Source: Burkholderia cenocepacia
GTDB lineage: Bacteria > Pseudomonadota > Gammaproteobacteria > Burkholderiales > Burkholderiaceae
Direction of reading: 5' to 3'
Length of the DNA: 64,000 bases
NCBI RefSeq assembly: GCF_014211915.1
Contig: NZ_CP060040.1
Coordinates: forward strand, 1-64,000
A program made the position numbers and the translations under genes. Shown here one piece after another: positions 26,677-32,256 of the stretch (position 1 is its first letter; every line of letters begins with the position of its first letter). A model generated the notes under the pieces. It was not told where the DNA came from and ran no database searches. It saw only the letters and a program-made list of their open reading frames with translations.

Positions 26677-27492
26677 TCATCGGCCGTCGACCACGTCGCG
26701 CAGGAACGCGTCGAGCATCGCCACGTCGCCCCACGGCCGCTTGTATTCGCGATCGTGTTCGGCATCGGCGAGCATCGTCTCGACCAGCGCGTGGATCGCC
26801 GGCCGGCGCGGCCCGTATTCGCTTTCGTTCGCGCTCATCTTAAGCGCGAGCAACGCATCGAGCTCCGCGCGCACCGTCGGCTCGTGCACGGTCCCGTCGA
26901 CGAGATCGACGAAGCGCATCGGCGGCATGCCGAGCCCCATGTCGATCCAGCGGACCGCAAGCAGCGGACGCAGTACGTACAGGTACTTCTTGTAACGCAC
27001 CGTGTCGCCTTGCAGATAGCCGCGAAAATTTTTCTTCGCCATCGCGAGGTAGTGATGACGCCCGCGTACCGGCGAGAAGAACGCCGATGCCAGCGACCTG
27101 AGCCGCGGCGCCCAGCGCGCATCTTCGCGATACACGACGGGCGAGTCGAGCCATTCGAGCAGCGTCGGATTCGAGCGTCGCAGCAGTTGCAGCGCCTTGC
27201 GCAATTCCCAGCCGCTGACGTCGAGCTCGTCGTCGAGCGGCCGCTCGATCACGTCGCGTTGCGGTTCGACGCTCAGGTACCAGTCGCGCCGGTGTGCGTA
27301 CACGAAGCGTACGTCGTAATCGCTGTCCGGCGAAGCGAATCCCCAGCCGCGGCTGCCCGATTCGCACGCGAACAGCACGCATACATCATGGCGGCGTTCG
27401 ACTTCCGCGAGCTCCGCCATCACGCGTGCCCGCACCGCCGGGTCGATCGGATGCGCGCTGCGCACGGTCGTCATTGCCTTGTCGGTTTTCAT
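26677..27492 (-). CDS. RlaP-type DNA polymerase beta-fold nucleotidyltransferase
   Basis: A 271-residue nucleotidyltransferase. The polymerase-beta core is FACESGSRGWGFASPDSDYDVRFVYAHR: G-S-R-G-W-G with the D-x-D metal-binding pair in DSDYD. The rest is helical, with a lysine/arginine-rich region (MAKKNFRGYLQGDTVRYKKYLYVLRPLL) suited to RNA binding. Family PF10127 (RlaP) is known for association with RtcB RNA-repair operons, proposed to modify or restore RNA ends. Third gene of the operon, 55 bp after rtcB; start 27492 follows AAAGGA. A terminator follows directly. Which RNA it acts on is unknown. Confidence 0.85.
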   Translation of the reverse strand: MKTDKAMTTVRSAHPIDPAVRARVMAELAEVERRHDVCVLFACESGSRGWGFASPDSDYDVRFVYAHRRDWYLSVEPQRDVIERPLDDELDVSGWELRKALQLLRRSNPTLLEWLDSPVVYREDARWAPRLRSLASAFFSPVRGRHHYLAMAKKNFRGYLQGDTVRYKKYLYVLRPLLAVRWIDMGLGMPPMRFVDLVDGTVHEPTVRAELDALLALKMSANESEYGPRRPAIHALVETMLADAEHDREYKRPWGDVAMLDAFLRDVVDGR

Positions 27493-27547
27493 CGTTGTCG
27501 TTTTCCTTTCGTTGTGCGCGGCCGCTGGCCCTCGGCCGCACACCGCG

Positions 27548-28771
<1,224 letters not shown>

Positions 28772-28832
28772 TTGCTTCACCTGATTCATTTCGGGACCGG
28801 TGCGACACATCTGCATCGCGCCGGAGCCTGCA

Positions 28833-29972
28833 TTACGTGCCCTTGATGCTGACGAGCCCGTTCAGCACCTGGTCGAGACCGCCGAACACCGAGATGCGGT
28901 CGATCCGTTCCGCGACGCGCTCGAGCGTTTCCAGCTCCTTGAGCCGCAGTGCGGTCGGGTTTTCTTCCATCACCTTCGCGGTGTTCAGCAGCGAACGCGT
29001 GGCCGCCGTTTCCTCGCGGCGGCGAATCACGTTCGCCTGCGCGGATTTCTCCGCTTCGACCACCTGCGCGAGGATCGTCTTCATGTCGCCCGGTAGCACG
29101 ATATCCTTCACGCCGACGCTGCGCACGTCCACGCCCGAACCGTCGAGACGGGCGCGCACCTGCGCGATCACGACCTCGTCGAGCGACTGCTTGTCCTCGA
29201 GCAACTCGTCGAGCGAGCGCGTGCCGACCGCCGAACGCAGCGCGAACTGCAACTCGCGATACAGGTGTTCGACCGGCTTCTGCAACTGGTCGAATGCATG
29301 CAGCACGTCCGCATAACGCCACGTCGCCGACAGGTTCAGCCGCAGCGCGACCTTGTCGCGCGTCAGGATTTCCTGCCCGCCGACCTCGATCGCCTGCAAG
29401 CGCAGATCGACCAGCTCGACCGCGACGTCGCGGTTGAAGCGCCAGAACGCCGACGCGCCCGCGTCCAGCAACCGCTCGATCTTGCCGTCGACCTTCAGCA
29501 CGCCGACGTGGTACGCCGGCACCTGCGCCAGCAGCACGCCCGTCAGCCCCGCCACGCCGCGCGCACGCAGAGACGGTTGCGCGATGCGCTTCACGAGCGC
29601 GGCGGGCAGCATGCTGTCCTGCGCGAGATCGATGCGCTCCAGCCGGTGCGCGGTCAGGCCGCGCCAGTACAGCCGGCGCGTGCCCGGCGCCAGAATCTCG
29701 ACGAGCACGTCGTCTTCGTAGCGCAGGCCGGCTTCGTCGTCGGCGAGATCCATCGCGACGAAATACCGCGCGAGCACGTCCGGTGCGTCGTGACGCAGGT
29801 AGTCGGCCAGCGCTTCGTCGGCGAGCGGCGCGTCGAGACGCGCGGTCTGCACCGACAGGCGCTTGAACGGATCGAAGGCCTTGAACACGCCCGGTTCCAG
29901 CACCTTCACGAAATCGCCCTCGCTCATCAGCAGCGCGCGTTCGTTCTTTTTCACCACATGACGCTTCCACAT
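28833..29972 (-). CDS. SPFH/band-7 (slipin-like) protein of the RNA-repair operon
   Basis: A 379-residue SPFH-domain protein. The N-terminal region (MWKRHVVKKNERALLMSEGDF) has no transmembrane helix, unlike classic slipins. The SPFH core covers about residues 125-260 (TGVLLAQVPAYHVGVLKVDGKI, VALRLNLSATWRYADV, ALRSAVGTRSLDELLEDKQ, GVDVRSVGVKDIVLPGDMKTILAQVVEAEKSAQANVIRRREETAATRSLLNTAKVMEENPTALRLKELE), followed by a coiled coil to the end. Band-7 proteins are recurrent partners of RtcB/RlaP; a scaffold for repair is inferred. AAAAGGAC precedes the ATG. It is the first gene after the structured tRNA-like leader and sigma-54 promoter. Confidence 0.88.
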   Translation of the reverse strand: MWKRHVVKKNERALLMSEGDFVKVLEPGVFKAFDPFKRLSVQTARLDAPLADEALADYLRHDAPDVLARYFVAMDLADDEAGLRYEDDVLVEILAPGTRRLYWRGLTAHRLERIDLAQDSMLPAALVKRIAQPSLRARGVAGLTGVLLAQVPAYHVGVLKVDGKIERLLDAGASAFWRFNRDVAVELVDLRLQAIEVGGQEILTRDKVALRLNLSATWRYADVLHAFDQLQKPVEHLYRELQFALRSAVGTRSLDELLEDKQSLDEVVIAQVRARLDGSGVDVRSVGVKDIVLPGDMKTILAQVVEAEKSAQANVIRRREETAATRSLLNTAKVMEENPTALRLKELETLERVAERIDRISVFGGLDQVLNGLVSIKGT

Positions 29973-30202
29973 ATTTTTGTCCTTTTATTCAATGGCCGCC
30001 GGGTAACGCGCATCGTGCGGATCGCGGGGCGACGCAATCGGGCGGGCGGCGCGCTGGCCGGCGTCGAAGCGCATGGCGACGCCTGCTGCATTGCGTCGTC
30101 GTGCGCCTTCGCGCGGGCCGTGCGGCCGCCCGGCCGATCGCGCGGAACCGCAACCGGTCCGACGCGCGGCGGGCCTGTCGGCCCGCACCGGCGGGTACTG
30201 CC

Positions 30203-30232
30203 TTCATACGAGACCGTCCTTGCGGACAGCGT
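30203..30232 (-). ncRNA. GNRA-capped hairpin after the tRNA-like module
   Basis: On the minus strand CTGTCC-GCAA-GGACGG (30229-30214) forms a 6-bp stem with one U-G pair and a GCAA tetraloop, directly after the tRNA-like module. It is a further structured element of the leader RNA, perhaps a processing or stacking unit. Confidence 0.4.
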
Positions 30233-30301
30233 TCGAGCGGGATTCGAACCCGCCACCGGCCGGCTTTCGCCGGCTGCTCCACCTGGCTGAGCTTTCGAAC
30301 A
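30230..30301 (-). ncRNA. tRNA-like RNA module with GAAA-capped anticodon arm
   Basis: On the minus strand this 72-nt segment folds exactly like a class I tRNA except for the anticodon arm. A 7-bp acceptor pairs UGUUCGA with UCGAACG (one U-G). Two linker bases follow, then the D arm (GCUC/GAGC, 9-nt loop with GG), then A26. The anticodon arm is replaced by GCCGGC-GAAA-GCCGGC, a perfect 6-bp stem with a GNRA tetraloop. A 5-nt variable region and a canonical T arm (GCGGG/CCCGC, loop TTCGAAT) complete it. No anticodon and no encoded CCA exist, so it cannot decode. It lies in the leader of the RtcB operon. The closest known parallel is the tRNA-like domain of bacterial Y RNA YrlA. Confidence 0.85.
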
Positions 30302-30303
30302 AT

Positions 30304-30350
30304 GGGCGCCCCGGGATTCGAACCCGGGCGAAGCATCCTGGTGCGCGCCC
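30304..30350 (-). ncRNA. Minimal tRNA-like module (acceptor plus T arm)
   Basis: On the minus strand GGGCGC(G) (30350-30344) pairs with GGCGCCC (30310-30304) as a 6-bp acceptor. It encloses a canonical T arm, CCGGG/CCCGG with loop TTCGAAT (30327-30311). Between them is only a 16-nt linker with a weak GCA/TGC hairpin whose loop holds CCAGGA. D and anticodon arms are therefore absent or rudimentary. It is separated from the fuller tRNA-like module by three bases. A longer alternative acceptor strand (GTGCGCC, 30415-30409) is possible. Not a functional tRNA. Confidence 0.65.
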
Positions 30351-30354
30351 CTTT

Positions 30355-30442
30355 GCCTTCGTCTGTCCATGGCGGCATGCGCTACCGCGACGAACGAGGT
30401 TCGGCGGCGGCGCACCAGCAGGGCTTGTTGAACCCTGGCTCG
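30355..30442 (-). ncRNA. Structured 5' part of the rtc leader RNA
   Basis: On the minus strand TTCGTC (30394-30389) pairs with GACGAA (30363-30358), enclosing GCGG/CCGC with a 9-nt loop. Upstream, CAGGG/CCCTG (30437-30433 and 30423-30419) forms a T-arm-like hairpin with a 9-nt loop beginning TTCAA, perhaps a decayed tRNA-like copy. The stem with a large loop recalls Y-RNA architecture, but the fold is hand-drawn. Confidence 0.45.
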
Positions 30443-30474
30443 TGGGCCAGCGGGACATCCGGCGCCTTTTATTT

Positions 30475-30490
30475 AGCGAGGAGCGTGCCA
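30475..30490 (-). promoter_or_regulatory. Sigma-54 promoter of the RNA-repair operon
   Basis: On the minus strand TGGCACG-CTCC-TCGCT matches the sigma-54 consensus TGGCACG-N4-TTGCW with one mismatch, and the GG/GC spacing is correct. Transcription would start near 30463, giving a leader of about 490 nt that contains the tRNA-like modules before the slipin gene. RtcR, encoded divergently, is the expected activator. Confidence 0.85.
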
Positions 30491-30639: not shown

Positions 30640-32256
30640 ATGCGCAGAACCGTTGCGATCGGTTTTCTCGGCACCGTGCTCGACCAGGGCGGCCGCGCGC
30701 CGCGCCGTTACCGCAAATGGCGGCCGACGATTTCGCTGTGCGAGCAGCCCGACCTGCCGATCGACCGGCTCGAACTGCTGCATTCGCTGGACTACACGCG
30801 TCTCGCCAACCAGGTGCGGGACGATCTCGCGCGCGTGTCGCCGCGAACCGACGTGCGGCTCACGCCGGTCACGATCCACGATCCGTGGGATTTCGAGGAG
30901 GTTTATGCGACGCTGCACGATTACGCACGCGCGTACCCGTTCGACCTCGAACACGAGGATTACCTGGTCCACATCACGACCGGCACGCACGTCGCGCAGA
31001 TCTGCTGGTTCCTGCTGGCGGAAGCGCGCTACCTGCCCGCGCGCCTCGTGCAGACCGGGCCGCCGCAGCGGACCGACGAAGGGCCGAGCGGGCCGGGCAC
31101 GATCTCGGTGATCGATCTCGACCTGTCGCGCTACAACCGGATCGCGCAGCGCTTCACGCGCGAGCGCGACGAAACGGTGTCGTTCCTGAAGGCCGGCATC
31201 GCGACGCGCAACGCGCGCTTCAATGCGCTGATCGAGCAACTTGAGCGCGTGGCGGTGCGTTCGCGCGCGCCGATGCTGCTGGTCGGGCCGACGGGGGCCG
31301 GCAAGTCGTTTCTCGCGAAGCGCGTGTACGAGCTGAAGCGCGGCCGGCATCGGCTCGCGGGGCCGTTCATCGAGATCAACTGCGCGACGCTGCGCGGCGA
31401 CGCGGCGATGTCGACGCTGTTCGGTCACGTGAAGGGCGCGTTCACAGGGGCGCAGTCGGCGCGTGCGGGGCTGCTGCGCGCGGCGGACGGCGGGCTGCTG
31501 TTTCTCGACGAGATCGGCGAACTCGGGCTCGACGAACAGGCGATGCTGCTGAAGGCGATCGAGGAGAAGCGCTTCCTGCCGGTCGGCGCGGACGTCGAGG
31601 CGACCAGTGATTTCGAACTGATCGCGGGCACGCACCGCGATCTGCGGCAGATGGTGGCGGCCGGCACGTTCCGCGAGGACCTCTATGCGCGGATCAACCT
31701 CTGGACCTATGAATTACCGGGACTGGCCGAGCGCCGTGAGGACATCGAGCCGAACCTCGAATTCGAGCTCGACCGTTTCGGTCGCGAGCAGGGCGAGCAG
31801 GTGCGGTTCAACGTCGAGGCGAAGCGGCGCTATCTCGCGTTCGCGGCCTCGCCGCGCGCGACGTGGGCCGGCAACTTCCGCGAGCTGTCGGCGTCGGTCA
31901 CACGGATGGCGACGCTGGCCGATGCGGGGCGCATTACCGAGGCGCTCGCCGAGCAGGAAGTCGAGCGGCTGACGCGCACGTGGTCGTCGCCGGGTGGCGC
32001 GAATATGGCGGACGCGTGCGTCGACGCGGTGTTCGGTGCGCGTGCGGCGGAACTCGACCTGTTCGACCGTGCGCAGCTCGAACGTGTGCTCGACGTGTGC
32101 CGCACGTCGGCGAGCCTGTCGGAAGCCGGGCGCACGCTGTTCGCGGTGTCGCGGCAGAGCAAGAAGCAGCCGAACGACGCGGACCGGCTGCGCAAGTATC
32201 TCGCGCGGTTCGGGCTCGATTGGGACGGTGTGCGGCGCGCGCTCGACGGTGCGTGA
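30640..32256 (+). CDS. rtcR: RtcR, sigma-54 activator with CARF sensor domain
   Basis: A 538-residue RtcR. The N-terminal CARF-like sensor (residues 1-180; VAIGFLGTVLD, DYLVHITTGTHVAQICWFLL) is known to sense RNA fragments with cyclic-phosphate ends. The AAA+ domain has Walker A GPTGAGKS (216-223), the sigma-54 contact GAFTGA (266-271) and Walker B LLFLDE (286-291). The C-terminal part (about 450-538) ends with a Fis-like region (LSEAGRTLFAVSRQSK). It is divergent from the slipin-rtcB operon and should activate its sigma-54 promoter when RNA is damaged. The start 30640 gives the native MRRTVAIGFLG N-terminus; a longer in-frame start at 30610 is less likely. Confidence 0.95.
   Translation: MRRTVAIGFLGTVLDQGGRAPRRYRKWRPTISLCEQPDLPIDRLELLHSLDYTRLANQVRDDLARVSPRTDVRLTPVTIHDPWDFEEVYATLHDYARAYPFDLEHEDYLVHITTGTHVAQICWFLLAEARYLPARLVQTGPPQRTDEGPSGPGTISVIDLDLSRYNRIAQRFTRERDETVSFLKAGIATRNARFNALIEQLERVAVRSRAPMLLVGPTGAGKSFLAKRVYELKRGRHRLAGPFIEINCATLRGDAAMSTLFGHVKGAFTGAQSARAGLLRAADGGLLFLDEIGELGLDEQAMLLKAIEEKRFLPVGADVEATSDFELIAGTHRDLRQMVAAGTFREDLYARINLWTYELPGLAERREDIEPNLEFELDRFGREQGEQVRFNVEAKRRYLAFAASPRATWAGNFRELSASVTRMATLADAGRITEALAEQEVERLTRTWSSPGGANMADACVDAVFGARAAELDLFDRAQLERVLDVCRTSASLSEAGRTLFAVSRQSKKQPNDADRLRKYLARFGLDWDGVRRALDGA

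What the first reader, a model, noticed from the sequence alone, without database searches (positions are those of the whole stretch)
30230..30301. tRNA-like RNA with a GNRA-capped anticodon arm in the RtcB operon leader
Seen directly: a 72-nt minus-strand segment has a 7-bp acceptor, two linker bases, canonical D arm with GG in the loop, A26, 5-nt variable region and T arm with TTCGAAT loop, but the anticodon arm is GCCGGC-GAAA-GCCGGC. It cannot decode. It sits in the leader of a sigma-54/RtcR-controlled RNA-repair operon. Known: RtcR's CARF domain senses damaged RNA, and bacterial Y RNA YrlA near rtc genes carries a tRNA-like domain. Inference: the module is a sensor, decoy, adaptor or guide for repair of tRNA, or feeds back on RtcR.
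Basis: partly seen in the sequence, partly recalled or inferred. Interest (0 to 1): 0.92.

Follow-up and report, generated by a model that had tools for sequence, protein, structure and literature searches.

The report
tRNA-mimic leader of Band-7 RNA-repair operon
Ahead of an RNA-repair gene cluster in a Burkholderia genome lies RNA that copies the shape of transfer RNA but cannot read the genetic code; a similar layout precedes the matching membrane-scaffold gene in distant bacteria, so it may be that gene's working RNA partner.

Summary
In detail: 30230-30301(-) folds as a cloverleaf whose anticodon arm is a 6-bp stem capped by GAAA. It is one part of a larger conserved leader. After a sigma-54-type promoter come a structured domain A; a stripped-down tRNA-like T1 (acceptor, small hairpin, T-arm); the reported element T2, 2 nt further on; a short GNRA hairpin; a G+C-rich block C; then Band_7. 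T2 and domain A show strong covariation. T2 loops vary (GNRA, UNCG, 3-9 nt), so decoding is not what is conserved; elbow and inner acceptor are. The leader follows Band_7 rather than RtcB or RtcR: among 27 RtcR loci domain A is found at 7 of 7 with Band_7 adjacent (one weak) and 0 of 20 without, and at 8 of 8 cyanobacterial Band_7 loci. It is not YrlA: no Rsr gene, score far below cut-off, and ordinary tRNA clusters score as high. A tRNA-like RNA paired with Band-7 repair systems was, as I recall, already named by Burroughs and Aravind (2016; not held here). Best reading: a modular, Y-RNA-like partner RNA with tRNA-elbow mimics as handles. That is inferred; processing signals are a close rival.

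The parts
30475..30490 (-). sigma-54-type promoter motif TGGCACG-N4-TCGCT
   Evidence: Read; a motif of this kind lies within 800 bases upstream of Band_7 in 54 of 79 related loci by pattern. The 25 without include two with almost no upstream sequence and the Enterobacteriaceae, several of which read TGGC at the second element (by eye).
30370..30449 (-). domain A: structured RNA, a hairpin followed by a GGUGCGC...GCGCAUGCC arm
   Evidence: Model R1, 81.1 bits, the only hit in the genome at E<0.1; 16 of 23 pairs with compensatory changes in 34 sequences, 94.0% cells paired vs 78.9% (sd 0.8) shuffled.
30304..30350 (-). T1: minimal tRNA-like (acceptor GGGCGC/GCGCCC, small hairpin, T-arm CCGGG-UUCGAAU-CCCGG)
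   Evidence: (fold of 30302-30350); 17 distinct acceptor helices among 22 rows that had been picked as fully paired.
30230..30301 (-). T2: the reported tRNA-like element with GAAA-capped anticodon arm
30213..30230 (-). short hairpin with GCAA loop directly after T2
   Evidence: Fold of 30213-30350; similar short hairpins read by eye after T2 in other loci.
30154..30201 (-). block C: GCAGUACCCGCCGG..., G+C-rich, shared start in relatives
   Evidence: Read by eye across loci; not modelled or tested for covariation.
28836..29972 (-). Band_7/SPFH (slipin-like) protein gene
   Evidence: Pfam PF01145, 98.8 bits.
27548..28816 (-). rtcB RNA ligase gene
   Evidence: Pfam PF01139, 435.5 bits.
26677..27498 (-). 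RlaP nucleotidyltransferase gene
   Evidence: Pfam PF10127, 318.5 bits.
30640..32256 (+). divergent rtcR regulator gene (RtcR domain plus sigma-54 activator domain)
   Evidence: Pfam PF06956 274.8 bits, PF00158 169.8 bits.

Best explanation
The leader is the cognate, modular RNA of the Band_7 protein. Shown: a conserved structured domain A followed by none to three tRNA-like modules (two in most loci, head to tail), upstream of Band_7; the modules keep T-arm, inner acceptor and (T2) D-arm and let the anticodon end shrink, vary or be capped by stable tetraloops. Inferred: the RNA is made when the operon is switched on (through RtcR and sigma-54 here), domain A anchors it to a partner (the Band_7 ring or another operon product), and the elbow mimics act as handles for proteins that recognise the upper half of tRNA, bringing tRNA, repair enzymes or RNA-decay enzymes together, much as Y RNA does for Rsr and PNPase. 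Which protein binds each module is not known.
For: Domain A follows Band_7: among 27 RtcR loci, 7 of 7 with Band_7 adjacent and 0 of 20 without (Fisher p 1.1e-6; 4.3e-6 without the window's own genome). One of the seven, L155, is weak (18.6 bits, E 0.07, close to the 18.2 bits that an off-place match reaches) and rests on position and eye; without it 6 of 7. The model was trained on Burkholderia and Pseudomonas among others, so L129-L132 are not distant from it; L141 and L147 are 28.7 and 48.8 bits. 8 of 8 cyanobacterial Band_7 loci carry domain A (21.6-31.1 bits, E at most 0.005) and tRNA-likes, in organisms for which a passage reports no RtcR homologue. In the 79 Band_7 loci, 61 score 49 bits or more, 34 of them used for training and 27 not. 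Domain A and T2 covary. T1 is reduced to acceptor, small hairpin and T-arm in most parsed loci but is a full cloverleaf in others. Anticodon loops: of 56 parsed T2 elements 24 GNRA and 4 UNCG by script, 3 more GCAA by eye; 18 have a 17-nt arm, 11 of those with U33. Six loci that hold Band_7 and RlaP but no RtcB within the fetched stretch still have a T-arm in the leader.
Against: No binding or expression data. No T-arm was found in two Pseudomonas loci that keep domain A (L070, L071). In 15 Enterobacteriaceae loci R1 is weak (13.9-25.4 bits at the expected place in 11) or silent up to E 5 (L101, L104, L106, L107), and off-place matches reach 18.2 bits, so domain A there rests mostly on reading by eye. 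That SPFH proteins bind RNA is not shown by any search. No terminator-like site lies between leader and Band_7, so the RNA may never exist apart from the mRNA. In cyanobacteria T2 looks closer to a real tRNA, with CCA in several, and in L169 and L171 another open frame seems to lie between leader and Band_7 (by eye). A sample of the class gave 1 hit in 274 genomes, but at most 17 candidates per genome were scored.
Confidence: 0.38

Rival explanations
1. T1 and T2 are processing signals: RNase P and RNase Z or E cut at them, splitting the transcript into a free domain A RNA and the Band_7-rtcB mRNA, as RNase P does at mascRNA next to MALAT1 (recalled).
For: T-arm and inner acceptor, parts such enzymes need (recalled), are the parts kept; T1 is close to a minimal RNase P substrate (recalled); T1 and T2 lie 0-4 nt apart in most parsed loci; the T1 acceptor is followed by CCA at the expected place in 9 of 64 parsed loci by script, and a few more by eye. 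Module number varies from none to three, as expected of replaceable signals.
Against: T2 acceptors are poor: the outermost pair is absent in 24 of 38 and the next in 12 of 38; CCA after T2 is rare in proteobacteria (by eye). The anticodon stem, not needed for cutting, has compensatory changes at all five pairs.
Confidence: 0.3
2. The tRNA-likes are a cis-acting sensor or feedback element: damaged-tRNA processing, RtcR or RtcB reads the leader and tunes operon expression.
For: Position in the 5' leader; the rtc operon responds to damaged tRNA (title and passages of PMC7790460; passage of PMC8619066).
Against: Domain A not found at 20 of 20 RtcR loci without Band_7, and found upstream of Band_7 in cyanobacteria.
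Confidence: 0.13
3. Decoy for tRNA-cutting toxins: a tRNA body without a cleavable loop soaks up the nuclease.
For: Loops replaced by stable tetraloops in several lineages; PMC7790460 suggests such a role for the tRNA-like part of YrlA (passage).
Against: Anticodon nucleases mostly recognise the anticodon arm itself (recalled), which is what is lost; the minimal T1 has no such arm; some lineages keep 7-nt loops.
Confidence: 0.1
4. Inert remnants of tRNA genes captured in the leader.
For: Loops and terminal pairs are degenerate; no T-arm in two Pseudomonas loci.
Against: Compensatory changes in each T2 helix that varies; two adjacent tRNA-likes in most proteobacterial loci and, by ARAGORN, in 4 of 8 cyanobacterial loci.
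Confidence: 0.09

Closest known systems
tRNA-like RNA paired with SPFH/Band-7 RNA-repair modules (Burroughs and Aravind 2016, NAR 44:8525; abstract recalled, nothing of it seen here)
   Same: tRNA-like RNA linked to Band-7 in RNA-repair operons.
   Different: I could not check what that paper describes; domain A, the tandem layout, the tetraloop caps and the cyanobacterial cases may or may not be in it.
YrlA Y RNA (Rfam RF02553)
   Same: Non-coding RNA with a tRNA-like part in RNA-repair operons.
   Different: Score 19.5 bits against 69; T2 has the normal order of arms; no Rsr/TROVE gene in this genome.
Ordinary tandem tRNA genes
   Same: Cloverleaf, elbow, tandem layout; elements in six of ten loci scanned pass Rfam's tRNA cut-off (L058, L060, L067, L077, L097, L109).
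   Different: No anticodon loop here, no CCA after T2, outer acceptor pairs missing in many relatives, fixed place behind domain A and before Band_7.
mascRNA (RF01684)
   Same: T1 resembles a small tRNA-like with acceptor and T-arm.
   Different: 20.7 bits against 42.5.

Membership tests
Decoding tRNA | 7-nt anticodon loop with U33 | tested here: not met
   GAAA tetraloop in the window; 18 of 56 T2 relatives have a 17-nt arm, 11 with U33.
Decoding tRNA | Acceptor, D-arm and T-arm in tRNA order | tested here: met
Decoding tRNA | Standard 7-bp acceptor with CCA end | tested here: not met
   Terminal U.G and no encoded CCA; CCA could be added by enzyme, not testable.
YrlA Y RNA (RF02553) | Covariance score over the curated cut-off | tested here: not met
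   19.5 bits vs 69; ordinary tRNA clusters reach 35.4 in this genome and 42.7 elsewhere.
YrlA Y RNA (RF02553) | Rsr/Ro60 (TROVE) partner in the genome | tested here: not met
   0 matches to PF05731.
Band-7-linked tRNA-like RNA | Sits with a Band_7 gene in an RNA-repair operon | tested here: met
   for the window; for relatives.
Band-7-linked tRNA-like RNA | Matches the RNA described in 2016 | not testable with these tools
   Paper not held.

The most novel reading that the evidence does not exclude
A conserved RNA class found in two phyla: a multi-domain RNA dedicated to the SPFH/Band_7 ring, with domain A, for which no Rfam family scored, as anchor and one to three tRNA-elbow mimics as interchangeable handles; a counterpart of the Rsr-Y RNA machine built on a different protein ring.
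Probability: 0.35. Interest if true: 0.82.

Novelty: new variant of a known kind. Interest (0 to 1): 0.62.

Why it matters
SPFH/Band-7 proteins are encoded beside RNA ligases, yet what they do in RNA repair is open. A conserved RNA that follows the Band_7 gene, can be searched for with a model, and shows which parts of tRNA are kept (elbow, inner acceptor) and which are dropped (anticodon) makes that question testable. It also suggests that some annotated tRNA genes, possibly including PA4581.1 of P. aeruginosa, are not decoding tRNAs.

Tried and rejected
YrlA kinship: the YrlA model hits the T1-T2 junction in 6 of 6 loci at 29.8-42.0 bits, which looked like a permuted tRNA born from a tandem pair; the control killed it. 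Matches that ARAGORN shows to be ordinary tRNA clusters score 35.4, 35.2, 26.6 and 21.2 in the window's genome and 42.7, 41.7, 40.3 and 32.3 elsewhere.

RlaP could lie outside the stretch.

A closing stem P1 around domain A: complementary stretches found in single loci were not consistent and many fell in the promoter; not claimed.

Alignment A1 was cut at wrong coordinates and A4 misaligned the acceptors; neither is used. The class-wide R1 search is a weak negative because few candidates per genome were scored. Rfam at cut-off found nothing in the window.

The tetraloop chance estimate (5 of 6 lineages, p 1.3e-6) rests on lineages grouped by hand and equal base use; indicative only, not used above. 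The T1 acceptor rows were picked as fully paired, so their pairing rate says nothing; only the number of distinct helices (17 of 22) is informative.

Full report
What is in the window. The minus-strand element at 30230-30301 is as described. ARAGORN reports it as a tRNA of undetermined identity, and its minimum-energy fold is a cloverleaf. Its neighbours are a divergent rtcR (30640-32256, +) and, in the same direction as the element, Band_7 (28836-29972), rtcB (27548-28816) and the nucleotidyltransferase RlaP (26677-27498). A sigma-54-type motif TGGCACG-N4-TCGCT lies at 30490-30475(-). The genome is 7.6 Mb in 4 contigs; the Band_7 protein is 99% identical to that of Burkholderia cenocepacia NCTC13227.

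More than one element. Two bases upstream of T2, at 30350-30304(-), sits a smaller tRNA-like, T1: acceptor GGGCGC/GCGCCC, a small hairpin, and a T-arm with loop UUCGAAU. Further upstream, close behind the promoter, is domain A (30449-30370). After T2 come a GCAA-capped hairpin (30230-30213) and a G+C-rich block C beginning GCAGUACCCGCCGG at 30201 (read by eye, not modelled). No terminator-like site was found on the minus strand between leader and Band_7.

Relatives. One scan for the Band_7 protein gave 79 loci, the best of 101 candidates: Burkholderia, Paraburkholderia, Pseudomonas, other betaproteobacterial and gammaproteobacterial lineages, Enterobacteriaceae and one cyanobacterium. A T-arm motif occurs twice within 800 bases upstream of Band_7 in 51 of 79, once in 23, and not at all in 5. 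Of those 5, L059 and L072 hold only 316 and 38 bases upstream, L070 and L071 are Pseudomonas mosselii and P. entomophila, and L109 is the cyanobacterium, whose leader lies further upstream. T1 and T2 lie 0-4 nt apart in most parsed loci. T1 is a full cloverleaf in some (L060, L062, L079, L080) and a minimal form in most.

Covariation. For T2, 38 sequences chosen for diversity from 56 parsed were aligned. On the cloverleaf 93.9% of cells pair, covariation is 0.344 against 0.147 (sd 0.010) in shuffles, and slid structures reach at most 0.106; the anticodon stem has compensatory changes in 5 of 5 pairs, the D-stem never varies. The outermost acceptor pairs are not kept: 24 of 38 unpaired at the first, 12 of 38 at the second. 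For domain A, 34 sequences were picked from the 79 loci: 16 of 23 pairs with compensatory changes, 94.0% cells paired against 78.9% (sd 0.8), score 0.496 against 0.214 (sd 0.013), slid at most 0.135. The structure was derived from the same alignment, which favours it, and the shuffles do not remove relatedness.

How widely domain A is found. R1 run on all 79 loci scores 49 bits or more at the expected place in 61; 34 of these trained the model and 27 did not. Two loci lack the upstream stretch. The other 16 are 15 Enterobacteriaceae and L109: 12 give 13.9-25.4 bits at the expected place, and L101, L104, L106 and L107 give nothing up to E 5. Matches at unrelated places reach 18.2 bits in the same search, so the Enterobacteriaceae are suggestive only; by eye they show the hairpin and CCGGC core.

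Loops. Of 56 T2 elements parsed, 24 have GNRA and 4 UNCG loops; L052, L053 and L074 also carry GCAA but failed the script at the outer pair; L064 and L088 were not resolved (L050, L055 and L108 had no D-arm by pattern). Caps of these kinds occur outside Burkholderia and Paraburkholderia in two Accumulibacter MAGs (L065, L068), a Thiobacillus MAG (L067) and P. viridiflava (L079). The others have loops of 3, 4, 5, 7 or 9 nt; 18 of 56 have a 17-nt arm and 11 of these U33. Decoding is therefore not what selection keeps in general.

Test of the partner. A search for RtcR in 398 genomes of the phylum found 27. Band_7 lies within about 1.5 kb of RtcR in 7. R1 hits those 7 and none of the other 20. 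One is the window itself (L129) and one its genus (L130); L155 is weak (18.6 bits, E 0.07), near the level of off-place matches. Fisher p is 1.1e-6 for 7 of 7, 4.3e-6 without the own genome, and still 6 of 7 against 0 of 20 if L155 is dropped. R2, the T2 model, hits the leader side in the same 7; elsewhere it finds tRNA-Arg (L139), tRNA-Cys (L151) and two tRNAs of L155 beyond RtcR, and an ordinary-looking tRNA-Pro in the RtcB leader of L145. L155 has three tandem tRNA-likes (two of them by R2).

Another phylum. In the cyanobacterium Chamaesiphon polymorphus (L109) R1 gives one hit in the genome at E up to 5 (21.6 bits, E 0.79), and it lies upstream of Band_7, followed by tRNA-likes. A search of 194 genomes of that phylum found 8 with the Band_7 protein, L109's genome included; all 8 have domain A by R1 (21.6-31.1 bits) and at least one tRNA-like by R2 and ARAGORN; in four (L167, L168, L169, L172) ARAGORN calls two within two bases of each other. 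In L169 and L171 another open frame seems to stand between leader and Band_7 (by eye). Passages of PMC10272220 report no RtcR homologue in Anabaena, and a slipin-family gene and rtcB raised together in a trcR mutant; whether that slipin is this Band_7 was not tested.

What it is not. The genome has no TROVE/Rsr gene. The YrlA score is 19.5 bits in the window, and in a control ordinary tandem tRNA genes score as high as the best T1-T2 pair. It is not a decoding tRNA.

Expression. A passage of PMC8743555 names tRNA gene PA4581.1 as one of two genes with the highest rise in a late P. aeruginosa isolate, significance unknown. L058, P. aeruginosa PA7, has its T2 called tRNA-Arg(ACG) between rtcR and Band_7. 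That PA4581.1 is this element is inferred from its number and place (recalled), not tested.

Prior knowledge. From recall, the abstract of Burroughs and Aravind 2016 names a novel tRNA-like molecule as the RNA partner of SPFH/Band-7 repair modules. The paper is not held. Ten searches, of which I read listings and passages of some papers, showed no description of the tandem layout or of domain A; most subscription papers are outside that library. Hence the rating: new variant of a known kind.

Mechanism. Shown: conservation, structure, order of parts and linkage to Band_7. Inferred: that the RNA works as a modular scaffold with tRNA-elbow handles. The processing-signal rival is nearly as good, and end mapping would decide between them.

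Noticed in passing
L145:1181-1258(-): An ordinary-looking tRNA-Pro(TGG) with CCA lies between a sigma-54-type motif and rtcB in an RtcR locus without Band_7.
   Followed up: partly
L145, L149, L151 leaders upstream of rtcB: Three RtcR-RtcB leaders without Band_7 share a hairpin-like stretch containing GGAATGGGCC (by eye).
   Followed up: no
L070, L071: Pseudomonas mosselii and P. entomophila keep domain A but show no T-arm in the leader.
   Followed up: partly
L090, L091, L094, L095, L099, L104: Band_7 is followed by RlaP with no RtcB in the fetched stretch, yet a T-arm lies in the leader; domain A by R1 is weak (13.9-22.7 bits) or, in L104, silent.
   Followed up: no
L078, L081, L086: The RtcB in these loci is only about 30% identical to the window's RtcB while Band_7 is about 60% identical.
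   Followed up: no
L054:4001-5581 and L105:4001-5581: The Band_7 match is about 450 bases longer than elsewhere, which suggests an insertion in the gene.
   Followed up: no
L169 and L171, between leader and Band_7: An open frame of another protein seems to lie between the leader RNA and Band_7 in two cyanobacterial loci (by eye).
   Followed up: no
L155:3345-3559: Three tRNA-like elements in tandem behind a divergent, weakly scoring domain A.
   Followed up: partly
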